In this document: positions 1 through 50,093 of the stretch, one piece after another
Layout of the letters: every line of letters starts with the position of its first letter
How positions within the stretch are numbered: the stretch's first letter is position 1
NCBI RefSeq assembly: GCF_036373705.1
Contig: NC_089867.1
Location: forward strand, 18,465,666-18,529,665
Length of the DNA: 64,000 nucleotides
DNA from: Amia ocellicauda
Lineage: Eukaryota; Chordata; Actinopteri; Amiiformes; Amiidae
Direction: 5' to 3'
Made by a program: the position numbers and the translations under genes
The notes under the pieces: generated by a model
What the model saw: only the letters and a program-made list of their open reading frames with translations
Told to the model about the DNA's origin: nothing
Databases searched by the model: none

Positions 1-3000
1 TGACACATCCTCCAGCCCACAGAGCACTCACGCTGCATGACTATTTAACCGGATGTACCCAAAATCGCTGTGTGATCAGCTGTGGTGTTGATGACCGAAT
101 TGTTGTACCTTCCAATTCCTAGGCATTAACCATTTAACCAGGAAAAACAACATACAAAGGGGGGAAGAAATTATATATAAAGAATGTCCTTTGTATATGT
201 AAGTTTCAAATGTAATGATTTTATCAGTGTCTGTATAGTAACTCTGCCTTCCTCAATTCTTGTTTTCTTTTTCTTTGTATCTTCCTTAATATTCCTGAAG
301 GGTTTTGTTTGGGATTACACTGAAGCAAAGTTTGGCCAAAATGAAACTGGCATTCAAAATGCTGTTCTCACTTCTTCCTGTCTCTGAAACCGCAGTGGCA
401 TTGAGAGACTAGATACATGGAGCAGTGAAGTCTGATCCAATAACAGCTTGGTCCTCTGAGTGGTTGGAATGTCTTTTTGAAAGAGTGTTTCGACGTGGTT
501 GGGTAGGAGAATTGCAATTTTGATGAGGTCCATTCAGGCTAATGAAATGTCCAGGGTATCTTTCCCTGAATGCACTCCACATCCACACTTAACTTGGCTT
601 CCATCCTCACTCGTATTCTTAATCTATTTTTTATATGACCACTTACAACATTATTTTTATGTATATCCCTTAAAGAAATCACACAAACACAAAATGAATA
701 TTAGCAGTGAAGAAGTAAATATGTACAGTGTCTTTTATAGATCAGGTAAGATTGTTTCCACAGCCTCGCTAATTATGAAGTAAACACAAGACCTCTTTGC
801 TTACCTGTTGTGTTTTACAGTGAGGAGATAATTTTTGATTTTTCTAAAGGGTTTAGTATTGTTTGCACATTTCCTCACCAGTAAGAATATGAAGGGATAG
901 ACGTGGATGACCATTTGAACTACTGATAGTGAATTTGAAATTGCATACTTTGCAGGCACTGATTTAAGTATAGTCCAGTCCCTGTCGCATTAATAAGACT
1001 GGGCATGGAGCTGTGTTTTGAATCTGCACCTCTGAATTGTGCAGAGTATAGAAGACATTTCACAGGATATGAAGGGAAAAGAGTGTGAGTGGGGGGGACT
1101 CTGATCAGCTAGTCATTTTTTGTATTTTTTTGGTTTGTTTTTATTTATAGAGACATATTTGAAAGTCTTTGCACTCCATAAATCTGACAAACTGAAATCG
1201 TAGATGCCAATGGAAATTCATTCTGAAAGAACGTGAAATATTTATTGAAGATATAAACCTGTGTCTTTAAGATTGTTCTTCACTTGTTTTTATAGCACTG
1301 TGTTTTTTGTGTGATGTTACTGCAGGTGGGTTGAAGGGGGAGTTGTTTAGTTTCCTCGTGGTGTCAAACTGCCGGGGAGATTGTTGATTGAAGTGTGTGA
1401 CCTTAGGAAATGCATGACTCTGGCCAGCCAACCAGCAGTACTTGCTTGTGGACACACTTACAGAAAGATGGATTCAGATTAGGAGCAGCAGCAGAGAGGA
1501 AGTGAATTGTGTGTGCTTTTTAGTAACACTTCTGTTAATATAGTACTGCAGTTTTTCTTCTGCTTGCATTCCATAGAGAATCTGGTACTATTCCTGAATA
1601 ACCTTTGAAGGGGTGATTTTATTTGTAAATTAGTTTCTTAATTCCCTCAGGTTTCTTGTCAAAGTGTGTTTTCTTATGGGAGATGTGTGTAAATACTGAA
1701 GGAGCGCTCTGTTTCTATGGTCAGCCAGCCTTTAGAACAGAGGTTTGCACCACATAACCTCAAACAACGTTTACATTAACTTTCTGTTGGCAGTTGGGAT
1801 TGATCCCCCGAATGTTTGTTCAGTGTTAACCAGTTTAATACTCAAAGTCTGTTGGACTGAAATTAATCGAATATCTTCTTGTAGAAGATTAGAGAATAAT
1901 GTAATCTTCACTGCGTGGGAGGTAATTTTATATTTCCTCTCTTAAAAATATTGAAGTAGGTTGGGAAACTAAAATGATACATCGATGCAAAACAAGTTCC
2001 ACCAAGTGAGATTTATCAGAGCAAAGATTTTCATTACTATTATTATTTTTCTTGGAGTTACTGGTTTACTAAACTATAGAATAACCTATGGATTCTATTA
2101 ACTGTTTTATTAAATGTATTTATTTTCATTTGCAATGTTTGTGTACATATATACAGTATATATTAGTTTGCAGCTTTTTGCACAAAGTAGGCTGAAACAG
2201 ACAGGTGGATAAATGTTTGCATTTTATCAATATCAGTCATTCCACAAACTCTGCTTAGTAATGATACTTGAACAAAATGAAGCAGTCTTTATTCAAAAAT
2301 GAGGGGATTGTCAAATTGGGAACCAAAAGTGGTAATCTTATAATGGGACAGGCACGAGTGCTGCTGTGAGAGAATGTTGAATGTACTGTCAATAGGATGT
2401 TGCCTGTATGCATCGTTTTTCCATTGTTTTAAAGAAAAAAACATTGTAGTCCAAGATTGCTTTTTATTGGGAGCTGTTTATTTTTGTGCTTCCATTTACG
2501 AGAAAGTCAACTAGTTTCAAACAACATGATTTCTTTAAGAGGTCATTTATTAGTAGAACTTAAATCATATGTGTAGTGATAGCCTAGTTCTATACTATAG
2601 GATTACGATGTTGAAAGTGGGCCTATATTAGGTTTTTAATAGCAGGTAGTATCTTCAAATATTTAAAACTAATCATGGCTAGGGCCTACAACTTGCAGCT
2701 CAACTCCACGGTGTTTATTCACAAACTGTCACACTAAACTGCTTACCATCCCTTATTTTAATTGATTACAGCAGAGTTTCAAAGAGCAACACTCCAGCGA
2801 TCCTGATCTATTAAACAATTTCCCCTACAGGAAGAATTTTATTTGAAACTAAAAAGTTGACATTCTCTTTGACACATTCCTTTAAAGTAACAAAAAATAA
2901 AACATTAACTGTACATTTTTTTTTTTTTTTGTCAGATTTGCTTCATTTTCATACTTATTTTGTAAATATATATGTTGTATGGAGCTTGAATTAAAATGTA

Positions 3001-3160
3001 AATATATTTCATGTATTTGTACTAATTATAATCCATTCGCTGTATAGCCTAGATGTGTAATGCAGATATAGCCTATCTAATTCTGTGTATGGTAATCTTG
3101 CACCATTGAACTGTTTAGTGAACGAGGTAACAATAAAGGTACAACCAGTGCATTAGCAGA
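1..3160 (+). other. AT-rich non-coding stretch, possible KIF1B 3' UTR
   Basis: No coding exon can be recognised here; the short open frames have no family features. The stretch is AT-rich with T runs and ends with a good AATAAA signal at 3132-3137. In human the gene immediately upstream of PGD on the same strand is KIF1B, which has a very long 3' UTR, so this may be that UTR. This is inference from gene order only; nothing in the sequence names the gene. Confidence 0.35.
3132..3137 (+). terminator. poly(A) signal AATAAA
   Basis: A canonical AATAAA hexamer at the end of the AT-rich non-coding stretch. It would mark the 3' end of the upstream gene (KIF1B by synteny). A second AATAAA lies near 3450, so the true end could be further right. 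Confidence 0.35.
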
Positions 3161-4389
3161 ACAAAACACCCGAGTACTGTGATTATTACTGGGTTTAATT
3201 TACTTGTGGAGACCTACAGATTCTCTATCCTCAGAAGCCTAACCAGATGATCTCAAACATGACGGGTATAATGTAAAACACTGCAAAATGATTGTGCATG
3301 CTTGCTATTCAGGCAGGCTGTCATAATGCATACTCAGAAGTTTTTCTATTGTATTTTTTTTATTTTTAACTATGTGAATTGTTGTATACATTAAAACCAC
3401 AACACTACAGATGTGAGATTGTTGAGAAATGTGAGTACTGTTTGAAAAAATAAAACTATTTGCTACATACAACCAAAAATGAAAACAATTACTAGGCTAA
3501 ATGTAATTGTTTTTGGTAGTTTTCATTGCAATTTTGTTTTGCTATATGCTTGGATGTGGGTTAAGCTTATTTTGTTTCTTAAAGTATTAAGTTCAGGCTT
3601 ACAGTTAGCATAAGGAAGACTTAAAGGTGGGCTTGAAAGAGGTAGGTTAGTGAAAATGTTTCATAAACACAATTTTTAAGTATGAAGTTTGAGTTGGGAT
3701 ATGCAATAAATACTCAGCCCATTGTAATCCCCCTCAATAGCCTGGACTCCAAGTCTAGCCATCCCCACAACTGGAAAAACCTCACTTCGCCTGCCTTGAT
3801 GGACTGATTAGAAATACCTAAACCCAGTCTGAACCCTAAAATAATGTGACTACTTTCTGCACAATATCTTATTGAATGTGTATTACTTTGTATAGTAGTA
3901 TGCCGGTTTCTACAAATGATAATTTGTAGGTTAGTGTAAGTAGTATTGTAGTAGTAGAAGGTTAGGAGTAGTATGTGGCAGTACAAAGTAGCAGTAGTAG
4001 TGTAACATCAGGTACGTTAGTGTCCATGAATGTACAGGTTGGATACAGAGTCAAGTTCCATGATAGTTCATGTCTCCTGGATAAATGTGAATAAGTGTAT
4101 CATGGTGGTTGTTGTTTTTTTTGCACTAACATGTTTTTAGCATTTGCTGAGAGAGTGAATGATATGTTGCATTTATTTTGTGATGGTAATTACTCCAGTC
4201 TACAATCTTTTTCACGAATTTAAACATTAAAGTTCTTAAATACTGTTCATGAAAAAATATCTACACCTGTGTGAAGGAAATCCAGTTCTACAGCCGCATA
4301 TAGGCATCACAATGCTCTAATCTTCTACTCTCAACACATACAATCTATAAAGCAAACTCTGATCGTTACAAACCAGTTACAGAGTTTCT
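3161..4389. other. intergenic, nothing recognised
   Basis: AT-rich unique-looking sequence with no coding signature, repeat terminus or RNA gene that I can identify. Confidence 0.5.
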
Positions 4390-4404
4390 ATTTCAAGTTT
4401 AAGG

Positions 4405-4410
4405 TTTATT
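4405..4410 (-). terminator. candidate poly(A) signal of the transposase gene
   Basis: The plus strand reads TTTATT, which is AATAAA on the minus strand, about 250 bases beyond the stop codon of the transposase ORF. It is the first canonical hexamer I noticed downstream and would give a short 3' UTR. Confidence 0.35.
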
Positions 4411-4657
4411 CGCTCCTTCAGTGTGTAATCCTTGAATACGTATATGATACCAACTACATAAGTGAATACCAAGAGAAGTATTCAGTCAAAATGCAAATAC
4501 AGGCCCTTAAAGAACATCGTGATCTAAGTCTTCATTCGCCCTACAGGATTGATTTATAATATGCAGTCCCATTTGAATGCTACCTAAATGTTTTGCAGGG
4601 CTTAAAGGTAGGTGCACATATACACCCAAGGTGAATACAAAACAGGATAAGACCATT

Positions 4658-5683
4658 TCAAAAGCTGGTAGCTTTCCCGCGGGCGTCGTGCAGGGCGAGC
4701 ACACGCTGCTGCATTGAAGCAATAAGGCTCTGGATGAAGGTCTGCTCCAGGTTGTGCCAGAGTCCAGTCAATATGTCCTTCAGAGCTGAAACGGACGTGG
4801 GGGGCGGTTTTGTCTTCTGCAGCTGCCGGTCAAGGTGCTCCCAGATGTGCGTGATGGGGTTCATGTCGGGGCTCCTGGGCGCCCAGGAGAGCACCTGCAG
4901 CCGCTGCTCGCTCTTCCACTGGGTGCTGCTTTTGCAGGTGTGACAGCTGGCGCCCTCCTCCTGCAGCACATGCGTGTCCAGCTGCACGACCCCCTGCTGG
5001 AAACACGGCAGGAGATGCTTCTCGAGAATGGACACGTACTCTGCGGAGGTCAGGGGGCCCTCAGTGAACACCAGCTCGGTCTTCCCAGCGTCCCAAACCG
5101 CTGCCCACACCATCACACTGAAGCCATCCTCCTGCACCGTGGGCTGCAAACAAGCCTCCTGAAACGCCTGGCCAGCCTTCCTCCACGCCCACGACCGTCC
5201 ATTGGATGTGAACTGCTGGAACTGAGTCTGGTCTGAGAACAGGACCGACTTCCAAAATGCCGCCGGCTTGTCCTGCATTTCCTGGGCCCATGCGAAGCGG
5301 CGCTTTATGCTGGCTTTCGTGAGGAGAGGCTTGGGGCGAGCCACGCTGCCGTTGTAGCCCAGTTTGTGCAGGTAGCGCTGCGCCGTCCGCTGGGACAGGT
5401 TGACGCTGCTGGCGATGTCTACCAGCTTGGTGCGCGGATTGGAGCTCACGACGCGGACGAGGGCTTTTTTGGTTCGCTCTGTGAGCATGGATGGCCGGCC
5501 GGGTCGGTGATTGACTGCGGTTTCATTGGACTGGCGATATTTAACAATGATGTTGTGAACTGTCCCATTCGCAAGACCCAGAGTCCTCGCTATCTGCCTC
5601 TCACTGTGACCGCACTCTGACTGCCCAACTACCCGGCCCCGTGTAAATGGCGATATGTCAAAGGCTCCGGCCGTACGAGGCAT
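4658..5683 (-). CDS. Tc1/mariner-type transposase gene, intact ORF with altered catalytic triad (possibly domesticated)
   Basis: An uninterrupted 341-codon ORF, the normal length of a Tc1-type transposase. The N-terminal third (about residues 10-120) is the paired-like double helix-turn-helix DNA-binding region, with a GRP linker inside RPGRPSML near residue 64. The C-terminal part is the RNase H-like DDE domain. The first catalytic Asp is kept (LFSDQTQF). The usual QQDNAPCHT reads QEEGASCHT, so the second Asp is Glu. The usual [11 protein letters not shown] reads SPDMNPITHIW, so the third acidic residue is Thr. Cleavage activity is therefore unlikely, yet no stop or frameshift is present. 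The ORF is rich in GC and CpG inside an AT-rich flank. I found no terminal inverted repeats next to it, and the upstream region resembles a TATA-less cellular promoter. Either a decaying element or a domesticated DNA-binding protein gene; the second fits better. The family assignment is secure, the function is not. Confidence 0.88.
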   Translation of the reverse strand: MPRTAGAFDISPFTRGRVVGQSECGHSERQIARTLGLANGTVHNIIVKYRQSNETAVNHRPGRPSMLTERTKKALVRVVSSNPRTKLVDIASSVNLSQRTAQRYLHKLGYNGSVARPKPLLTKASIKRRFAWAQEMQDKPAAFWKSVLFSDQTQFQQFTSNGRSWAWRKAGQAFQEACLQPTVQEDGFSVMVWAAVWDAGKTELVFTEGPLTSAEYVSILEKHLLPCFQQGVVQLDTHVLQEEGASCHTCKSSTQWKSEQRLQVLSWAPRSPDMNPITHIWEHLDRQLQKTKPPPTSVSALKDILTGLWHNLEQTFIQSLIASMQQRVLALHDARGKATSF

Positions 5684-5749
5684 CTTTTACCATCCAGCTG
5701 CCCTGATGCCAAACCGTTAATTATGAGAACAAGATCATAAACTCCTCCA

Positions 5750-5825
5750 TTTGATTTTACTTCCGCCCTCCCGTACGCTAGGCATTGTGGGAATGTAAAC
5801 TTCCGGAATCGCTCTTTACCATAGA
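5750..5825 (-). promoter_or_regulatory. promoter-like region with two ETS sites and a ZNF143-like site
   Basis: Upstream of the transposase start on the minus strand lie two ETS-type motifs. ACTTCCGG on the plus strand at 5799-5806 sits inside the palindrome TTCCGGAA, and ACTTCCGC is at 5759-5766. Between them GGCATTGTGGGA (5781-5792) resembles the ACTACAATTCCCA core bound by ZNF143. ETS and ZNF143 sites are typical of TATA-less housekeeping promoters. This is a reading of short motifs only. Confidence 0.45.
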
Positions 5826-6059
5826 CTGCAATAACTAGATCGGCTACAATAATGTGAACACATTGTGATATGAAATCGTGTTTATGACAGTTTGAGGCAC
5901 CCGAAGAGAGGAAATATAACTGCTAAAGAATATCTATTGCATCACTGTTTATTTAGTGTGGCAAAATCAATAACACATAAGAAAGCTACACCCTCTAAGT
6001 TGTACATTTCTTATGCTTGTTTTCTGTCATTTGGATTTTACACTTTGTGAGTATGGCTA

Positions 6060-6291
6060 TACACACAGCTCTGGAAAAAATTAAGAGACCACTGCACCAA
6101 TGCATCTCTACATGTATGGCATCCATTCCATTCCATTCATAATTTTATTTGGAATTTGGGAGAAATGTTGTCAGTAGTTTATTTAATAAAACAAAAATGT
6201 TCATTTTACCCAAACACATACCTATAAATAGTAAAACCAGAGAAACTGATCATTTTGCAGTGGTCTCTTAATTTTGCCCAGATCTGTGTAT
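6060..6291. mobile_element. MITE with about 35-bp inverted repeats
   Basis: The left end contains AAATTAAGAGACCACTGCA and the right end contains its reverse complement, TGCAGTGGTCTCTTAATTTT. The outer parts also pair (TATACACA ... TGTGTATA). TA dinucleotides flank both ends, as expected for a Tc1/mariner target site. The roughly 160-base interior is AT-rich and non-coding, so this is a short non-autonomous element. Confidence 0.8.
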
Positions 6292-6296
6292 ATCAT

Positions 6297-6715
6297 CACC
6301 ATCAACATCATCCTATATCAATCCCCTGCTGGATGAAAGCCTCCCAAAGATCTTTCCACTTGCTTCAATCTACAGTTTCTATTTTCCTTGTCATGCATGT
6401 AAAGTGCATGATATCATCTTCCCATCTTCTGTGTGGTTGTCTTTTATTTTCATTTTTTTTAATCCCTTGGGATCCATTCAATAACTTCCTTTGTCCATCT
6501 TTGATCTGTTCTTCTTGCAATGTGTCCGGCCATTGCTATTTTAACATTTTCACTCTTTCAATCATGTCTGGTTTGTTTGGTTTGTTCTCAGATAAAATGT
6601 TCTGTCTCTTCTAGTTATTCCAAGCATACATCTTCCCATGCTCCTTTGTGTAGCCCAAAGTTTCAGTATCACATCCATAAGTGAGCACTGGTAGTATGCA
6701 TTGATCAAATACATT
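6297..6715 (-). mobile_element. non-LTR retrotransposon fragment (reverse transcriptase C-terminus), degenerate
   Basis: Read on the minus strand, the stretch resembles the C-terminal tail of a LINE endonuclease-reverse transcriptase. Around 6440-6500 it reads TKEVIEWIPRD followed by a stop and a lysine-rich run, where related elements have WIPRDKKRKRGRP. Several stops and frameshifts show it is dead. The clade is probably RTE-like; that is from memory of the protein tail, not from a search. Confidence 0.6.
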
Positions 6716-6821
6716 TGGGTAGATTTCCTTTCAATCTACAGTATATAATGAACATTAACGACACTGTATTTTCTCTCCTTTCTTTCTATCTTGCACCCCC
6801 CTCTCTCTATACACCCATATA

Positions 6822-6855
<34 letters not shown>

Positions 6856-6928
6856 TTCTTAGCAGATGCCCTTGTCCAGGGCGACTTACAAAATATAAGT
6901 GCAATGCAAAGTGCAATAATACAGTGCA

Positions 6929-6930
<2 letters not shown>
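6822..6930. repeat. (ATT)n tail plus SINE piece with L2-type core
   Basis: An (ATT)n run at 6822-6855 is joined to TTAGCAGATGCCCTTGTCC, followed by AGGGCGACTTACA and then a GTGCAATAATACAGTGCAG segment. This core is shared by V-SINE and L2-related fish repeats. Related pieces occur near 23.6 kb and 30.06 kb in this window. Confidence 0.75.

Positions 6931-6991
<61 letters not shown>
6930..6991. repeat. (TA)n microsatellite
   Basis: About 30 uninterrupted TA units directly after the SINE piece. Confidence 0.97.
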
Positions 6992-6993
<2 letters not shown>

Positions 6994-7039
6994 GTGTGTG
7001 TACAGAAATAGAAAAGACAGTGTCTTTAATTTTCAATCA

Positions 7040-7750
7040 ACAATTACAAACTTATGTGATATAAAATAGGTCCCCATTGCTTGCATGAGGCAAATGGATA
7101 CCACTGCCAACTTATCTATTGATGAGTGAGGCAGATGAGAAACAACTCGAGCAATAAGGAAATATAACATTTACTTGAACACATCTGTGTATTTTGTTAA
7201 CAGAAAACGTGAAATTGTGTTCTGTGATATTGTTTACTGTCCCAAAGAAAGACAGGAATGAATGTTATCAGAAATAACCCAGATTTGTCCGAAAGGCTCA
7301 GTTTCTGCACTGAAATGCACCCCCCTTTGGTGGTACTCAACAACAGTGCGTATTCATGTCAGGTCCCCAGGTGAACAGCAGCAGAGTCTCCCCAGCATCG
7401 CAAAGCCAGCCCACACATTTAAGATTAGTTGCACTTTGGGTTGCTCCTCCACATCTGCACTATACACTTGCATTGAATCGTCAAAACTCAGGTAACACCA
7501 CAGACCTCCAAAATGTAACGTTTCTGTGAGAATGTAACTTGCATAGACGTAAATAAATAAAAAGGGTAAAGTTGGCATGTTCATCTATAACGAGAGACGT
7601 TTACATTTTGGGCTGTCAAGTGCTGTACGACGCCATTCAGATCAGAAACCAAAGAGTTTAGTAATCTTTGTAATCTTCTCTCGATTACATTGGCCTTTTT
7701 TTCCCTACGCGCCGGATGGAAGGTGAACGCCAGATCCAAGACTGGCATGC
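7040..7750. other. intergenic, nothing recognised
   Basis: No coding or repeat signature identified between the repeat cluster and the PGD promoter. Confidence 0.45.
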
Positions 7751-7754
7751 GGTG

Positions 7755-7974
7755 TAAGCCAATCATTATCCTCCTTTCCTCAGCTCAGCATGTTCCTGCC
7801 AATGAGAATGATTGGGGGCGGGGCTCGAAGCCGGCTACGTCACTCATTTCGGAGACAGCGCTGTCACTGTGAGTCAGTTAGACGGAGCGGAGCGCAAAGC
7901 CAGCCTACGAGGAAGTAGCTGCTCAGATCAGTGCTAGTCTTTCTTTCAGGCGGACCCAACACGCACACATAATC
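7755..7974 (+). promoter_or_regulatory. pgd: PGD promoter and 5' UTR
   Basis: A CpG-rich stretch just upstream of the PGD start. It holds a GC box (GGGGCGGGG, 7814-7822) and CCAAT motifs in both orientations near 7757, 7798 and 7811; no TATA box is evident. This suits a constitutively expressed metabolic gene. The transcription start is probably near 7860-7900. Confidence 0.6.
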
Positions 7975-23330: not shown

Positions 23331-26300
23331 TGTGTTTGTGTGTTTGTGATCCCCTTTTGAATCTCTGCAGCAGACAAATCTTACGACATATTGAAGTGAT
23401 TTAACTAGCACAGTACAATGCGCATTTCTGTATTTAGACATTTGCTAACAGTAATTCTGTATTTTTCATGTACAATTTTATATGGACAGCTGTACAAAAA
23501 AATGGAAGAGTACCAACAAAGTGGTTATACATGTGTATGAATGTAGAGTAGAACAGAGTAGCCTGTTTGTTTATGTATTATGCAGGGCGACTTACTGACG
23601 ACTTCAATCAGAAATGTTTAAAAACATTACAAAGTGCATTAATACAATCAGTACAACAAACACCGATCAGCCATAACACTATGACCACTGACAGGTGAAG
23701 CGAATAACATTGATGATCTCGTTATCATGGCACCTGTCAGTGGGTGGGATATATTAGACAGCAAGTGAACATTTTGTCCTCAAAGTTGATGTGTTAGAAG
23801 CAGGAAAAATGGGCAGCGTAAGGATCTGAGCGACTTTGACAAGGGCCAAATTGTGATGGCTAGACGACTGAGTCAGAGCATCTCCAAAACTGCAGCTCTT
23901 GTGCGGTGTTCCCGGTCTGCAGTGTTCAGTACCTATCAAAAGTGGTCCAAGGAAGGAAAAGCGGTGAATCGGCGACAGGGTCATGGGCGGCCAAGGCTCA
24001 TTGATGCACGTGGGAGCGAAGGCTGGCCCGTGTGGTCCGATCCAACAGACGAGCTACTGTAGCTCAAATTGCTGAAAAAGTTAATGCTGGTTCTGATAGA
24101 AAGGTGTCAGAACACACAGTGCATCGCAGTTTGTTGTGTATGGGGCTGCGTAGCCGCAGACCAGTCAGGGTGCCCATTCTGACCCCTGTCCACTGCCGAA
24201 AGCACCTACAATGGGCACGTGAGCATCAGAACTGGACCACGGAGCAATGGAAGAAGGTGGCCTGGTCTGATGAATCATGAGTTCAAGGTGTTGGCTTGGC
24301 CTCCAAATTCCCCAGATCTCAATCCAATCGAGCATCTGTGGGTTTTGCTGGACAAACAAGTCCGATCCATGGAGGCCCCACCTCGCAACTTACAGGATCT
24401 GCTGCTAATGTCTTGGTGCCAGATACCACAGCACACCTTCAGAGGTCTAGTGGAGTCCATGCCTCGTTGGGTCAGGGCTGTTTTGGCGGCAAAAGGGGGA
24501 CCTACACAAAACTGTAGAAGTGCTAACAAAGAAGAACAGAGCAGGAGCATAAGGAAGCAGAGTTTAATATGAAAGTACATAAATGCCGGAGTGTTGAGCA
24601 GCCCAGGCGATTAAGCTGCTGTATTACAGGTCCGTGTCTTCAGCAACCGTTGGAATGTGGTTAAGGACTGTGCAGTCCTGTCCTCAGTGGGAAGGTTGTT
24701 CCACCACTTATGGGCGAGGGGGCAAATTTGTCAAATATCATCTGAAAACTGCTTGGTGGTTATATGGGAGGAACAAAAGAGCTCAGTGCAGATTATGTGG
24801 TACTTCTGCAGTGTTTTTGTTTTAACCACTTATCAGATTAGTGTTATAGTGTCTCCAGAAACCACTGAGTATTTAATGTGGGGGATTGGTGGGTAAGTAC
24901 GTTTAACCATTATGACTCTGACGCTGCCCCCAACCAGCACAGGGGACCTCCGTACTATGTCTGTCCACAGAAGTTCTGTTACGTAATCTCTTTATTACAT
25001 TTTCAAGACTGAGTTAATTTGTTTTAACCTTGAACTGTATTCTATGGAATCCAATTTGTGGAATGGATTAAAACATATTACCAAGGTGTCTTCATTTAAG
25101 CAGTTATTGTCCAGCCCTAGCACAGCATTTCCTTGTGTACAGATTAAGTTTTCTTCTGTATTTAAACTTCCCTCGAGAAAGATACATAATTAAAGCAGAC
25201 CAATTTTAAAATAAATCAACACTAGCCACTTAAACAAATAATGTAGTTCCAGGTAAAACACTGATTAGTTATTGTTTTCTATAGGTATATGAAAATGACA
25301 GACATGGAGATAGGCTTTCAATGAAATTTATCATATTTAATCTATGGTGTTTTTTCCTTTCTAAATGCAGGATGTAGTACTCATATGTGTTACGATAAGC
25401 TTATGAAGAAGCTTCAAGTCTGGTATATCTCAAGATCTAGGTATTGTTTTTCTATCTTTGCAATGTGTACACAGTTCATTTGCAAACAAGTGCTCTTAGA
25501 ATGTTATCCTGCTCAGGTTATAGGAGGACATTGGTGTGTTGAAAGAAAAGGAAATAGAAACATAATTTTAAAATAGCACATATTAGACTTAGAGTTTCAA
25601 AATTGTAAACAAATAAAAAAATTGCTACATTGTAAACCCTAATTAAGCCCCATGTCCCTCTTCCACATAATATCTATCTTTCTGTGTGTGTGTGTGTGTG
25701 TGTTTGCGGCTTTGCACATGTGTACATATGTTTATCTAGACAGAAAGATTATGTTTGGCCTAAAAGTTAGAAACGAGTATAAATGTAGAATCCACTATTT
25801 GTTTTTAATGCATTCCTCTTCATTTCAGATATTTTTGCAAAAGATCTTGAGGCATTTGCAAGGTAATATTCAACTGTCTTTTTCTTCATCCTATTATCCC
25901 CTTCTGTGAGCTGAATTATGGGTCTTATTTGACTCAATCTCTCTTAGATGTAGAGAAAATAAAAGCATGGCGAACCTCTATAGTGTGTGTTGAACATCTT
26001 GCAGTTAAAATACCATCCTGCCTTTTATTAGCTAATGATAGAGCGACTATTGTTACAGATTTCAGAAAAATAATGATTTTAGTTTGAATTGAAAACGGCT
26101 AATATTGCCAGTATACATATACTTCATGTATAGCACTTGTGATTTAGATTATGTGTCTCTGCTCTAGGCATGCAAAGAGAACCACAGTGAACACGGAAGA
26201 TGTCAAACTTGCAGCGAGAAGGAGCAAAGCACTGGTGAGTTTATCTGATCTACATAATGTTATCATCCCTTTTTATCTAATGTGATCAGTTAAGTGGAAA

Positions 26301-37201: not shown

Positions 37202-39860
<2,659 letters not shown>

Positions 39861-44300: not shown

Positions 44301-47300
44301 TACAATGCATTCATGATTAAGTATTGGTTTAATTATAAACGTGGGTGATTTTGTATTTATTTATTTATACTTGCTCAGCAGAATCATGTTCTGTGCTTTT
44401 ATAGCTGTGTTGCATTTACATTTACACTAGCTGGTGCCCACTATCTTTGGCCAGGCTGTTAAAATATTACATCAAAACCCAAATTGACTAAGAAAGGAAA
44501 TGGGGTGAAATCAATTTGATCTGATTGCATGGTTATGACATTTAGTTTTTTTTCCCTTTATGTATTTTGGGCATTACATTGACTCAAACTTGCCTCTTGG
44601 GTTGCTAGTTCACTTTCTTCAAATTATGGAATGCCCCAAAACCAGTAGTCTTCCTGCCAGCTTGTGCTGATGTAGCTGTCTTTGTTAAATACTGCACACT
44701 GTTTGTAACGCACAGGCACGCAAACAGGATGTGCTGAGAGAGCAGAGTTTGCTGTAAGGATTAAGGATTACTAAACTGAAAACACAGCACTGGTTTAAGA
44801 ATGTCTATTATGAACTGACTTGACTGACTGGTGACCTTGAGATTTAAATGTACGGCTGGAGGGGGGTGACTCACATCGAAAGAGCTCTGTCACAGAAACA
44901 TGTCTGGTGTTGTACTGTAGATACGCTGGTCTTTGGCGCTAAGAGGGGAACTGGTGGTGGCACTGGAAGACTCCAGCTTAATCCAATTGAGGGTTGAATC
45001 CAGTGGATCTAACATTTCTGTCCAGGGCAGGAGGAATGATGCGCTGAACTCTGTGGAGGTGAAGAATTTATCTCACAGAATGTATTATCAATAATGATGT
45101 CGCTGGTACGAGTGTTGCAGACAAGTGTCGATGCTTGAAAATACTAAGTGGGTGAACTATAGTATGTTCTTAACTTTATCTTACATAGCAATATTCTGTC
45201 ATCTAGTGTTTCCTCTAGGAATTACAGAACAAAATATTTGCCAAGGAGAGGAAGTTGATTTTATAAAGCACAGTGTGACAATCATACAGCTCCCCTAAGG
45301 CCTTTAAACACCATGGGAACTAGCGTTGCTTTTCTATTAGAACCGTTACAGTCAGTAGAGTGAGCAATACAGACCTTTGTGCTCATGTAACAGTCTATTG
45401 CATCTATAGATCACATCTCTCTAATGGCACTATTCAAAAAAAGTATACAGCCACTGACCTTTTTCTCAGTCCCTAGCACTCAGATGTTTTTAAAGAAACA
45501 AGTCAAAATTTGCCCCCAGAGAATAAACGATTAACTGTTCTGTAGAAGAGGAATCTGCACTTTGTAATCAGATGGATTCTAATTTTCACATATATCATCA
45601 TTAACAGTCTTACATGTATTGCACAGATCATGGGAAGGACCATTGATATCTTGCCTCTGTCGCTTGTTAGTGGATACTATGCCTACAGCATGGAGGCCAG
45701 TTGCCCTAATGGTATGTAACCACATTTAAACATACACAACAATATAAGATTCTTAATTTAATATGAACTATATACACCGATCAGCCATAACATTATGACC
45801 AGTGGGTGGGATATATTAGGCAGCAAGTGAACATTTTGTCCTCAAAGTTGATGTGTTAGAAGCAGGAAAAATGGGCAAGCATAAGGATCTGAGCGACTTT
45901 GACAAGGGCCAAATTGTGATGCTAGACGACTGGGTCAGAGCATCTCCAAAACTGCAGCTCTTGTGGGGTGTTCCTGGTCTGCAGTGGTCAGTACCTATCA
46001 AAAGTGCTCCAAGGAAGGAAAAGCAGTGAACCGGCGACAGGGTCATGGGCGGCCAAGGCTCATTGATGCACGTGGGGAGTGAAGGCTGGCCCGTGTGGTC
46101 CGATCCAACAGACGAGCTACTGTAGCTCAAATTGCTGAAACAGTGAATGCTGGTTCTGATAGAAAGGTGTCAGAACACACAGTGCATCGCAGTTTGTTGC
46201 GTATGGGGCTGCGTAGCCGCAGACCAGTCAGGGTGCCCATGCAGAAGGTGGCCTGGTCTGATGAATCATGAGTTCATGGTGTTGACTTGGCCTCCAAATT
46301 CCCCAGATCTCAATCCAATTGAGCATCTGTGGGATGTGCTGGACAAACAAGTCCGATCCATGGAGCAAAAGGGGGACCTACACAATATTAGGCAGGTGGT
46401 CATAATGTTATGGCTGATCGGTGTATATTTTAATGTCTATTTTGTATAATGCTGCAAACTTCCTTAGATATGCAAACAGTGTTCTTCTCCAGCACTCCAG
46501 TGTTTCTTTGAGCTTTTGACTTTTTTTCTCATTTCTCCTCCAAAAGCAGTGGTTATTTGTTTACTTCAATGCATAAACCTTAAATGCATATACCCTCATA
46601 CAAACCCTTATCATGCAGGGATATTTGAATTGCTGCATAGTTGAATAACAATTTGCTTTTTCAAGGGCTAAACCTCTCTTTTTTTTTCCTTCTGCAGTGT
46701 CTAGTTCCCCAGCAGAGGAGACAGTGTTACACATCTCAAAACGCAGAATGGGATTAATTAAGAGAGGAGGCTATGACAAAGACAGCTTGACTGTGAATAC
46801 TGTACTTGTGAAGCAAACAAACAGCTTCTCAGTGTTAGAGAACAAAGAGTATCTTCAAATCAGTATCCCCACAGCTCACATCCTTCAAGAAAAGGTCAGT
46901 GTGGTTGCTGAAGTTTAACCAACCCTGTGTGCTGAAGTAAATGTGGATATTTGTAATTCTGAATACAAATATTTCCCTTTTGAACAACAACCTATAGAGT
47001 ATATTGAAACCCAGAGACAGGTATTTCTGTGTTTTTCTCCTTTCTAACAGAACTGCACAGATCCTCCAGGTGAATTGTTTTTGCAGCCGTTCTTCAAAGT
47101 GGATGTAATTGTGACTTTCAAAGAAATGCCCTATAGATTCCCCTGGAGTATAGAGAATGTGTTTCCATGTGTTGGTGAGTATTGATCTTTCGGGGCACTG
47201 AGCAAGCTGACAGTGTGCAGTATTTACGACATCTCAATTAATTGTATACAGCATGTTCCCATTCTTTAGGACAGTGTTTGAAAAACTCTGTTCTCCGACA

Positions 47301-50093
47301 TGTCAGTTTTTCTGAATATTATCAAAGCCATATGTAAAAAACAAAACAAAAACCACAGTGTATTAGCTAAACACATGAGTCATGTGAGTATTGAATACAC
47401 ACAGACATAACAAAACATTTAGCACCGTATAATTTAATAATCACAACTTGTGGTTTGGGGATATAAATAACAGCAAAGCTTCTGACTATGTCAACAATGC
47501 TTTTGCAAACCTGATGTCAATACAGGTGTTGCTTCTGACATCCTCTGGCTGACTGGGCTGCTGTATCCTCTTTGCCACGTTCAAGTGCTATCGCCTTGCA
47601 TTATGGGAGCACTTGCCTCTGTACTGCCTTGAATAGCTATAGGACACCATAACCCAGTCAATTGGTCTCTGCCACATCCTTGAGAATATAGCTGCTATTG
47701 ATTCTCTATTACTCATTTGAATTGCCTTGAATAATTAATTGGAGTTGGAAATAATTAAGCAATGTAATGATACAAATATTTACTTTCCTGTGGAATTAAT
47801 TTATTTTGCCCACCAGGAATTACGGTCTTGCCCTTGGGAACTCCGTGTAATACAATTTCAGGAGTTAAATATAACCTCCAGTTCACCTCAGAACAGGTCA
47901 ATATTTATACTAAATCGAATCAATATTACAAATAAAATGATACATTAAAAGGGTTCTACCAATAACAAACAAATGAATACATTTTGGGGGGGATAATAAT
48001 TATATATAGATATAGATATATAGATAAAAGAGACCTAGTCATACATTTGTTTATTTAGGATCAGCCTGCAGGGGAAAGCTAAAAGTTGTACAAAAGTTTT
48101 TGTTGGTCAAAACAGTGTCCAAATGGCCCTTATATCTATTCTCAAGAAAACATTTACAAATATGCACTATTATATATGTAGTGCACAATGTACGCTGAAA
48201 CTGAACAATACATCCAGTGTTAATTGCACTCTCACATATCATGCATACTAAACTGTTTATGTGATGAGTGCCCCAGGACACTGCAGTTAACACCTGGGAC
48301 AGGCCAACACACACACAGAGAGAGAGAGAGGGGGGAGGGGCGGGACGGCTTCATATCAGTAATGAAACCCCGGTTTTATCTTCTGTGCTCTAAGAACAGA
48401 CTTGGCACCGAAGCTTGGCAGCACTACTGAAAGGGACAAGAAAGGAACACCTGACTGTTGGGGTTGGCAAGCAAATTACAAGAGCGGAGGTCCCTTAGTT
48501 ACATCAGTCGGATTAGGGGGGTTCACCGTTAGATTAGACAGGAAAAGGAGAAGAGAGGAGAGAATGCAGTAAAATACTTTCTTCTTGTAGTTTAAGGGCT
48601 CACACACATACTTCATTCTCATAACAATATCAGTAATTATAGAGATTAGCTACGAGTATGAAGTGATGTGTTGTGGCTGCCTTTGTTTGTCTCATGAGTT
48701 TAGTTTTTTACAAAAGTCACATATTACTTGTCAATTTCTCATGTCTTTTTCTTTTTTCTTTTTCTGGACAGAGTCTCAATCCACAAGCCCATCCTCTGTA
48801 GCAGTGACCCCAGCACAAGAGCACAAGAGCACAACAGCTAATCTCTACGACACAATTAGCACTGCTTCTGCTGCAGCCCGTGTCGGGTCCACTTTGGATC
48901 CAAGGGGACCTACAGATTCAAGTCTGTACAGCAAAGACGCTCGAGCCAGGGAGTCCTCTTCTCCCTCTGCAGAGATGGCCTTGGCTGCTGATCGAGGGGC
49001 CCGAGCAGCAAACCCTACACCTTCCCCCAGGGAGCTGCAGCCAAGTGAAGCTTCCACCGAGGGCCAGGAGAGTTCAACATCCGTGATAGCAGAGTGGAAA
49101 ACGTCGGCAGAACAAGTGACATCCACAGGTGCTCGAGTAGATCCGTCACTTGCATTACCTACAGCCGTGAAGGTTGCTTGGTCTTTGCCAGAGCTGGAAC
49201 ACAACCCATCGTGGCCCTCACCTCTGCTGCTCACCTCTGCCTCCCAACCAACCTCCTCCGATGTTCTGGTTCGCACTGAAAGTGGGGAGTATTCAACAGA
49301 GCCTCACCCCACAGGTTCAGAGACTTCGATCCCATACGGAGATGACCCAGTCTTGCTGACAACCTCACCCCATGTGGGCTCTAAACAATTGCAGGAAGAA
49401 AAGCGTGGAGGTGGAAAGCTCTCCTCAAATTGCTCAGAAGACGAGAGTGGTTCACCCACAGGACTTCAGTCTTCTGCGCGAGTTGAAGAAAGAGTAGTGG
49501 AGGGCAATGAAAATCATCAAATCTCATCACCATGTGGCATGGCACCTCCCCGCATCTCAGACCTCACATCGTTTAATGCGACGAAGTCTCCGCGTTTCTG
49601 GGAGGATAACACAAGTGTTGAAGAAGATGGCAGCTGGACGACAACGCAGCCAGCACCCAGCACTAATAAATCGCCACCACTCATGGCCTCCACTTCGAAT
49701 AATGAAACAACGGCTGCAGTCACTCTACTGCTGTACCGGTTTATTGCTGGAGAGACAGAGATGGGGGACATACCTTCCGAGCCATCACCCCACGGCAACG
49801 CAGAACAAGACAGCACTGACAACAAACAGATGCAGGCAACCGCTGCTCTGCCAGGGACCGCCCTGGGGCAGAGATTATCTACCACCAGTTTAGCGGACAC
49901 GTCGGAATTCCAAACATCTTCAAGCGGGACGACGTCAGCAAACAGGATATCTGTAGATGTCACTGCAGCCATGCAACACAGCAGCTTCAGCAGCGCACCG
50001 TGGGGCTCTCTTCCAGGGCAGAATGGGACTGACAGCCCAGCCCAGGAAACAGGGGCCTCATTTCCAACAGCTACAACTGATCACTGGGCCTGA
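41350..50093 (+). CDS. ciroz: CIROZ (C1orf127), ZP-N domain protein of the left-right organiser
   Basis: Secreted protein; family members act in the embryonic left-right organiser. Coding exons: 41350-41387, 41813-41895, 42190-42291, 43161-43285, 43803-43946, 44123-44161, 44921-45058, 45627-45711, 46698-46894, 47051-47174 and 48772-50093. Phases agree and sum to 2397 nt, about 798 aa. The start (MDRKTLCAVLVALFFCPM) is a signal peptide. A ZP-N-like region follows with cysteines in GDVECFTEYM, LSACGYSL, YSGCFVQL, VMKCPL and VYCTPD. Exons 7-10 carry a second beta-rich region with LPLSLVSGYYAYSMEASCPN and FKVDVIVTFKEMPYRFPWS. The last exon is a 441-codon low-complexity tail rich in Ser, Thr, Pro and Glu with no membrane segment. 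The family was recognised from these patterns and from its position next to TARDBP, inferred without a search. Intron 8 contains a dead Tc1 element. Confidence 0.85.
45773..46426 (+). mobile_element. non-autonomous Tc1-type element, copy 2 (both ends present)
   Basis: Starts TACACCGATCAGCCATAACA and ends with the reverse complement (TGTTATGGCTGATCGGTGTA is the closest reading), flanked by TA on both sides. The interior is a shortened transposase with the same central deletion as copy 1 (GATGAATCATGAGTTCA). Two further deletions remove the segment after GTGCCCAT and the segment between ATGGAG and AAAAGGGGG. At about 650 bases it cannot encode an active enzyme. It lies in CIROZ intron 8. Confidence 0.9.

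What the first reader, a model, noticed from the sequence alone, without database searches (positions are those of the whole stretch)
4658..5683. Intact transposase gene with a broken catalytic triad: probable domesticated Tc1/mariner protein
The ORF is full length with no stop or frameshift, yet two of three catalytic acidic residues are replaced (second Asp by Glu in QEEGASCHT, third by Thr in NPITHIW). The paired-like DNA-binding half looks complete, and no inverted repeats were seen nearby. A dead element should collect stops; an active one should keep its catalytic residues. Keeping the frame while losing catalysis fits selection for a DNA-binding role. High CpG content in an AT-rich flank also argues against ordinary methylated repeat decay.
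Basis: partly seen in the sequence, partly recalled or inferred. Interest (0 to 1): 0.72.

Follow-up and report, generated by a model that had tools for sequence, protein, structure and literature searches.

The report
Probable domesticated Tc1 transposase gene
A single intact copy of an apparently extinct jumping-gene enzyme, with its DNA-cutting site destroyed and a promoter-like stretch in front of it, has probably been kept by a vertebrate as an ordinary, perhaps DNA-binding, gene.

Summary
It is a DD34E-spaced Tc1/mariner transposase with triad D151, E243, T278 instead of D-D-E. It is the only full copy found in its 988-Mb genome: the other scored protein matches are 31-32% identical, and the DNA search finds itself and one 160-bp stretch (72%) of a wrecked sibling on another contig. 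That sibling aligns with 4 stops and 9 frameshifts in 221 codons, so an intact frame of similar age is not expected without selection. No flanking inverted repeats beyond chance were found, and the 5' flank is unique in the genome. The GC-rich block (4665-5709) coincides with the coding frame. A CpG peak covers the 5' end, and an ETS/ZNF143-THAP11-like/ETS cluster lies 76-123 bases upstream of the ATG. The gene sits between a KIF1B-like gene and PGD. Best explanation: a domesticated, catalytically dead Tc1 transposase kept for DNA binding (domestication about 0.75; DNA-binding role inferred). Orthologues, dN/dS and RNA, the decisive tests, could not be examined. Domesticated transposases are a known kind; the listings of six paper searches showed no DD34E/Tc1-proper example in a fish.

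The parts
4658..5683 (-). Intronless coding frame, 341 aa, DD34E-spaced Tc1 transposase-derived protein with triad D151/E243/T278
5357..5659 (-). Paired-like DNA-binding half (residues 9-109): first HTH at about 14-71 (HTH_29 above its cut-off; HTH_SB below its own), second HTH at 73-136 (HTH_Tnp_Tc3_2, runs on into the linker); GRP motif 'HRPGRP' between them (label recalled)
4808..5245 (-). RNase H-like DDE_3 domain (residues 147-292) with two of three catalytic acids replaced (E243, T278)
5799..5806 (-). ETS-type site CCGGAAGT, the only one in the window
   Evidence: motif name recalled
5782..5793 (-). TTCCCANNATGC core, ZNF143/THAP11-like, the only one in the window; its ACTACA half is imperfect
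   Evidence: motif name recalled
5759..5766 (-). Second ETS-type site GCGGAAGT
5301..5900 (.). CpG peak (o/e 0.84-0.99) over the promoter-like region and the 5' end of the frame
4405..4410 (-). AATAAA polyadenylation-type hexamer about 250 bases past the stop (a second at 4172-4177)

Best explanation
A Tc1-type (DD34E) transposon inserted long ago between KIF1B and PGD. Its transposase gene was kept by the host as a single-copy, intronless gene. The ends of the element were lost or worn down, the active site was lost (D-E-T), and the gene now sits behind a CpG-rich, TATA-less-type promoter with ETS and ZNF143/THAP11-like sites. Most likely mechanism (inferred): the two helix-turn-helix units still bind a specific DNA sequence, originally the transposon ends, and the dead RNase H-like domain serves as a dimerisation or protein-contact module, so the protein acts as a sequence-specific chromatin or transcription factor. 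Shown here: single copy found, intact frame, lost triad, no ends beyond chance, decayed sibling, GC block matching the frame and CpG peak at its 5' end. Inferred: promoter activity, expression, DNA binding and the regulatory role.
For: Single copy: protein search of the 988-Mb own genome gives itself and 117 other scored matches at 31-32% identity; DNA search gives itself and one 160-bp, 72% stretch; a distinctive 92-aa segment gives itself, the relic (46%) and 148 others at 29-43%. Decay control: the relic (L012) aligns over residues 86-321 with 94 of 221 identical, 4 stops and 9 frameshifts; score 267 against 35-52 for 6 shuffles. At its rate about 20 disabling changes are expected in a frame of the same age, P(0) about 2e-9, and 0.007 at a quarter of the age. 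Of 36 aligned CpGs of the frame the relic keeps 1; 18 are TG or CA. Differences by codon position are 90/78/134 (chi-square p 0.0002). The maximum-likelihood GC segment is 4665-5709, almost exactly the frame. The promoter-like cluster occurs in 0 of 200 first-order Markov shuffles of the window. CpG o/e peaks at the frame's 5' end (0.84-0.99) and before PGD's first exon (0.88-1.03), with 0-0.50 between. The 367 bases upstream of the ATG are unique in the genome. Catalysis: Sleeping Beauty E279D serves as a catalytically inactive control (PMC4820933, passages), so Glu to Thr at that place should be dead.
Against: No orthologue, dN/dS or RNA could be examined. Two scans outside the genome found no relative, though these collections hold prokaryote and viral contigs. 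The age comparison assumes that relic and gene are of similar age; only one relic was found, and the number of frameshifts depends on my alignment penalties. Two other Tc1 pieces in the window, of another family, decayed far less: 1 frameshift in 155 codons, and 1 stop plus 1 frameshift in 122; at those rates an intact 341-codon frame has P 0.11 and 0.004. The codon-position excess may partly date from the time when the element was active, and the protein-guided alignment favours matches at positions 1 and 2. The second HTH scores lower than in an intact family (49.5 against 61.1 bits). A short possible end pair (4196/5828) exists, reached by 199 of 2000 shuffles; if real, the promoter-like cluster lies inside the old element. 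CpG o/e as high as the frame's occurs in 73 of 1218 overlapping windows elsewhere in the 64 kb. The promoter pattern has 2 matches in the genome against 1 for its backward control, so no enrichment is shown. The 3' flank search did not complete. The structure model is too poor to use (mean pLDDT 45.9).
Confidence: 0.75

Rival explanations
1. A young, single, horizontally acquired Tc1 copy that lost catalysis by chance and has not yet had time to collect stops; no host function.
For: Tc1 elements are often transferred horizontally (general knowledge). Only one full copy is found and no orthologue could be checked. The genome carries another abundant Tc1 family with many open frames. Two other Tc1 pieces in the window are only mildly decayed.
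Against: A young copy should still have near-perfect inverted repeats within a few hundred bases; none beyond chance are found. Two catalytic replacements (plus Asn to Gly beside the second) without a stop or frameshift are unlikely. A relic of the same family is wrecked. A host-type promoter cluster and CpG peak would not come with a fresh insertion.
Confidence: 0.12
2. A dead, neutrally ageing copy that happens to be intact because local mutation is slow or GC-biased conversion protects the block.
For: The genome may evolve slowly; GC and CpG are unusually high in the block.
Against: The GC block ends within 7 bases of the end of the stop codon and about 26 bases upstream of the ATG, and the adjoining sequence is AT-rich; regional protection would not know the reading frame. 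The sibling relic lost nearly all aligned CpGs.
Confidence: 0.07
3. A domesticated dominant-negative repressor: the dead transposase binds ends of surviving elements and blocks their mobilisation.
For: DNA-binding half present, catalysis lost; the genome has an abundant Tc1 family with many open frames.
Against: That family's transposase is only about 32% identical and end recognition is family-specific (general knowledge); the gene's own family is represented only by one relic found.
Confidence: 0.06

Closest known systems
SETMAR (Hsmar1 mariner transposase fused to a SET gene, anthropoid primates)
   Same: Host gene from a Tc1/mariner-superfamily transposase; described in passages of PMC7325037. 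That it kept DNA binding is recalled
   Different: mariner rather than Tc1; a fusion protein; a 3' inverted repeat is still present. Here the transposase stands alone and no repeat beyond chance was found
Pogo-derived vertebrate genes (CENPB, JRK, JRKL, TIGD2-7, POGK, POGZ)
   Same: Mostly whole transposase frames kept as host genes, several with lost triads, told from elements by absence of inverted repeats and target duplications (PMC7386202 passages)
   Different: Different superfamily (pogo; mostly CENP-B_N/HTH_Tnp_Tc5 and DDE_1 domains). This protein has HTH_Tnp_Tc3_2 and DDE_3
Sleeping Beauty transposase (5cr4)
   Same: Alignable over residues 110-341, E=1.3e-33, same residue places for the triad
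   Different: Second Asp and the Glu are replaced; single copy; no ends beyond chance
F-box genes with a captured Tc1/Mariner HTH domain (PMC12062965, start of abstract in a search listing)
   Same: Tc1/mariner DNA-binding part reused in host genes
   Different: Only the HTH was captured, into F-box genes (in nematodes, as I recall; the listing breaks off before the host). Here the whole transposase is kept in a vertebrate

Membership tests
Tc1 (DD34E) transposase protein family | Paired-like HTH DNA-binding domain and DDE_3 domain in this order | tested here: met
   HTH_Tnp_Tc3_2 49.5 bits, DDE_3 51.3 bits, both above cut-off
Tc1 (DD34E) transposase protein family | 34 residues between second and third catalytic positions | tested here: met
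   E243 to T278
Active Tc1 transposon | D-D-E catalytic triad | tested here: not met
   D151, E243, T278
Active Tc1 transposon | Terminal inverted repeats flanking the gene | tested here: not met
   Best flank matches no better than shuffles near the gene (37 of 60 and 135 of 200 reach them); one 7-base CAGTCTA pair at 4196/5828, reached by 199 of 2000 shuffles
Active Tc1 transposon | Several closely related copies in the genome | tested here: not met
   Only itself and one 160-bp, 72% relic stretch by DNA; other scored protein matches 31-32% identical; the tool warns that counts are lower bounds
Active Tc1 transposon | TA target-site duplication | tested here: inconclusive
   Element ends cannot be located with confidence; no TA adjoins the weak candidate pair at 4196/5828
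Domesticated transposase gene | Intact single-copy frame without inverted repeats | tested here: met
   with the reservation on the weak pair
Domesticated transposase gene | One-to-one orthologues at the same place under purifying selection | not testable with these tools
   No relatives held for this genome; scans of prokaryote and viral contigs found none
Domesticated transposase gene | Transcribed from a host-type promoter | tested here: inconclusive
   ETS/ZNF143-THAP11-like/ETS cluster and CpG peak at the 5' end; no expression data

The most novel reading that the evidence does not exclude
A DD34E/Tc1-proper transposase was domesticated whole, as a stand-alone intronless gene with a housekeeping-type promoter, deep in a ray-finned fish lineage, and now works as a sequence-specific factor whose target sites began as the ends of its own extinct transposon family. 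Fish genomes are rich in Tc1 copies, so other such genes could be hidden among sequences masked as repeats.
Probability: 0.3. Interest if true: 0.68.

Novelty: new member of a known kind. Interest (0 to 1): 0.5.

Why it matters
Vertebrate genes from the Tc1/mariner superfamily are few: PMC7386202 names only SETMAR and CENPB as previously known from it, besides pogo genes (passages). A domesticated Tc1-proper gene would show that this very abundant fish transposon group also feeds the host's gene set. It also suggests a cheap screen: look for GC- and CpG-rich, single-copy, triad-lost frames without ends, which repeat masking normally discards.

Tried and rejected
Rejected: ordinary multicopy element. 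Clear inverted repeats around the frame: one search showed 25 of 43 pairs, 24 in a TA run; its one other pair, 6059-6096 and 6256-6293, lies wholly on one side and is a separate small palindromic element. In one search one of 10 pairs spans the frame (4187-4202 and 5822-5837, 81% complementary); it holds the CAGTCTA pair and is not beyond chance. Promoter cluster belonging to PGD: PGD exon 1 (ATGGCACA followed by GTGAGT, 7975, read by eye) has its own CpG-rich region at 7501-7900. Fusion to an upstream exon: a stop codon lies one codon before the ATG.

Led nowhere: single-sequence structure prediction (mean pLDDT 45.9), so no fold search was made. Scans of genome contigs (14 pattern stretches, none a relative) and viral contigs (2, none). 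Rfam and tRNA gave none. Inverted repeats around the relic (25 of 43 pairs shown): mostly A/T-run matches; one pair, L012:1107-1134 and 2771-2798, 75% complementary, brackets the relic and was not tested further. Paper searches: listings (25 of 214; 20 of 92; 10 of 13; 12 of 29; 8 of 164); none.

Full report
What is there. The frame is at 4658-5683 on the minus strand, 341 codons from an ATG at 5683 to a TGA at 4660-4658, with a stop one codon before the ATG. It matches HTH_Tnp_Tc3_2 (49.5 bits) and DDE_3 (51.3 bits) above cut-off, HTH_29 just above, and HTH_SB below cut-off. The only PDB sequence match at E up to 0.001 is the Sleeping Beauty catalytic domain (5cr4, E=1.3e-33). An intact member of an abundant Tc1 family in the same genome scores 61.1 and 50.3 bits for the first two models. 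So the DDE_3 fold signal is as good as in an intact protein, while the second HTH scores lower.

The triad. In the 5cr4 alignment the first Asp is kept (SDQTQ), the second falls on Glu (QEEG against QHDN) and the Glu falls on Thr (NPIT against NPIE). The positions are 151, 243 and 278, with 34 residues between the last two. From loci L002-L008, eight full-length frames were found, six of them distinct and aligned; all six have the ordinary motifs. Sleeping Beauty E279D is used as a catalytically inactive control (PMC4820933, passages), so Thr at this place should abolish catalysis.

Copy number. The genome has 988 Mb in 385 contigs. With the whole protein, 118 of 72008 first-look candidates were scored. 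The first is this frame; the other 117 are 31-32% identical, most with 346-aa open frames. With the frame's DNA only 2 matches appear: itself and a 160-bp stretch, 72% identical, on contig C2. With a distinctive 92-aa segment, 150 of 31166 candidates were scored: this frame, the C2 relic at 46%, and 148 others at 29-43%. The tool warns that only the best candidates are scored and that common words are skipped in DNA searches, so these are lower bounds.

The decayed sibling. The C2 place (L012:1262-1952, about C2:30973564-30974254) aligns with residues 86-321. Of 221 aligned codons 94 are identical, with 4 stops, 9 frameshifts and 13 gaps; 6 shuffled controls score 35-52 against 267. It has GC 0.43 and CpG o/e 0.16 over L012:1251-1950, against 0.60 and 0.72 for the frame. 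Of the frame's CpGs that could be aligned, 1 of 36 is CpG in the relic, 18 are TG or CA and 17 are other. Codon-position differences are 90, 78 and 134 over 217 codons, stop codons dropped; p is 0.0002 against equal shares. If the frame were neutral and as old as the relic, about 20 disabling changes would be expected (P of none 2e-9; at a quarter of that age 0.007). This assumes similar ages, rests on one relic, and counts frameshifts under my own penalties. Against it, two Tc1 pieces of another family in the window show only 1 frameshift in 155 codons, and 1 stop plus 1 frameshift in 122, against the L002 family; at those rates an intact 341-codon frame would have P 0.11 and 0.004. The relic could also be an old copy of the gene itself rather than of the transposon; either way the frame has outlived it.

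Flanks. The best ungapped inverted match between 4108-4657 and 5684-6056 scores 11, and 37 of 60 shuffles reach that. The best gapped one is reached by 135 of 200 shuffles, or with wider flanks (3158-4657 and 5684-6900) by 11 of 200. One search lists 10 inverted pairs in 4108-6058, one of which spans the frame: 4187-4202 and 5822-5837. It holds an inward CAGTCTA at 4196 and at 5828, which would make an element of 1633 bases. Tc1 ends often begin with CAGT (recalled), so this could be a vestige, but 199 of 2000 shuffles give an identical CAGTNNN pair and no TA adjoins either end. If real, the promoter-like cluster arose inside the old element. The maximum-likelihood GC segment in 3000-7300 is 4665-5709. 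GC at codon position 3 is 0.75, against about 0.61 for PGD exon pieces and 0.41-0.42 for L002-L008. No other 1026-base window tested reaches its GC (0 of 1218 overlapping windows), though 73 of 1218 reach its CpG o/e. The 367 bases upstream of the ATG are unique in the genome. The 3' flank search did not complete.

The 5' end. On the coding strand, 76 to 123 bases upstream of the ATG, lie CCGGAAGT (5799-5806), TTCCCACAATGC (5782-5793) and GCGGAAGT (5759-5766). The first two are the only ones of their kind in the window, and 0 of 200 Markov shuffles hold an ETS site within 40 bases of the TCCCANNATGC core. The names ETS and ZNF143/THAP11 are recalled; PMC11118474 (passages) states that THAP11 and ZNF143 bind nearly identical motifs and that ZNF143 and ETS motifs overlap at regulated promoters and transcribed regions. 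Genome-wide the pattern CCGGAAGT, 0-20 bases, TTCCCANNATGC has 2 matches, this place and one on C20, against 1 for the backward control. The C20 match lies in a CpG-rich region (o/e 0.40-1.56 in 200-base windows across 3 kb). That is consistent with promoters but is no enrichment. CpG o/e is 0.84-0.99 at 5301-5900, 0-0.16 at 5901-6700, 0-0.50 at 6701-7500, and 0.88-1.03 at 7501-7900 before PGD's first exon. A 9-codon upstream frame (5750-5721) lies in the presumed leader, read by eye. AATAAA occurs 250 and 483 bases past the stop.

Neighbours. Upstream, + strand frames in L010 look like the PH-domain end of KIF1B; I recognised them by eye and made no database match. The order is therefore KIF1B forward, this gene reversed, PGD forward.

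How it probably works. Steps shown: one intact frame found, no ends beyond chance, triad lost, sibling wrecked, promoter-like 5' end. Steps inferred: it is transcribed, its two HTH units still bind a specific sequence, and the dead RNase H-like domain acts as a contact surface, giving a DNA-binding regulator. A role as repressor of living elements is less likely, since the resident abundant family is only about 32% identical.

What is known. PMC7386202 (passages) names SETMAR and CENPB as the previously known genes derived from the Tc1/mariner superfamily, besides pogo genes; it uses absence of inverted repeats and target-site duplications as its criterion. PMC7325037 (passages) covers SETMAR, CENP-B and TIGD genes. 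PMC7731502 (passages) on DD38E elements reports no domesticated gene in the passages seen. PMC10027918 (passages) lists six transposon-derived transcription-factor families, none of them Tc1-proper. PMC7599744 (passages) mentions domestication in ray-finned fish only in general in the passages seen. Searches of the open-access library showed no DD34E/Tc1-proper domesticated gene of a fish in their listings (65 rows of titles and abstract starts out of 499 hits; searches had none). Subscription papers are not covered, and a gene model at this place may already exist in public annotation, which could not be checked.

Verdict. It remains unproven without orthologues and RNA. The checks added at the end brought a weak candidate for old ends and milder decay controls; the odds already allowed for an element origin with worn ends and are left as they were. 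It is a new member of a known kind.

Noticed in passing
window 6059-6296: Small palindromic, MITE-like element with 38-base arms, 89% complementary, 159 bases apart, just upstream of the gene.
   Followed up: no
window 4196-4202 and 5822-5828: Inward-facing CAGTCTA pair, 1633 bases apart end to end: possible worn Tc1 ends, but 199 of 2000 shuffles give such a pair.
   Followed up: partly
window 23942-24506 and 45909-46365: Two partial Tc1 pieces of another family, with one frameshift, and one stop plus one frameshift, in the stretches aligned to the L002 family.
   Followed up: partly
window 37202-37714 and 39053-39454 (-): Frames that look like the last and first coding exons of TARDBP (TDP-43), recognised by eye; the highest CpG o/e among the windows tested outside the gene starts at 39151.
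   Followed up: no
window 48591-50093 (+): A 500-residue open frame rich in Ser, Thr and Pro, possibly a mucin-like exon.
   Followed up: no
L026 1501-1528 (C20:20325758-20325785): The only other genome match of the ETS plus TTCCCANNATGC pattern, in a CpG-rich region with AAATGGCGG (YY1-like, name recalled) shortly downstream.
   Followed up: partly
loci L002-L008 and the listing: An abundant 346-aa Tc1 family; the frames of L002-L008 have ordinary triads, and most of the 117 listed matches have no stop inside, suggesting recent activity in this genome.
   Followed up: no
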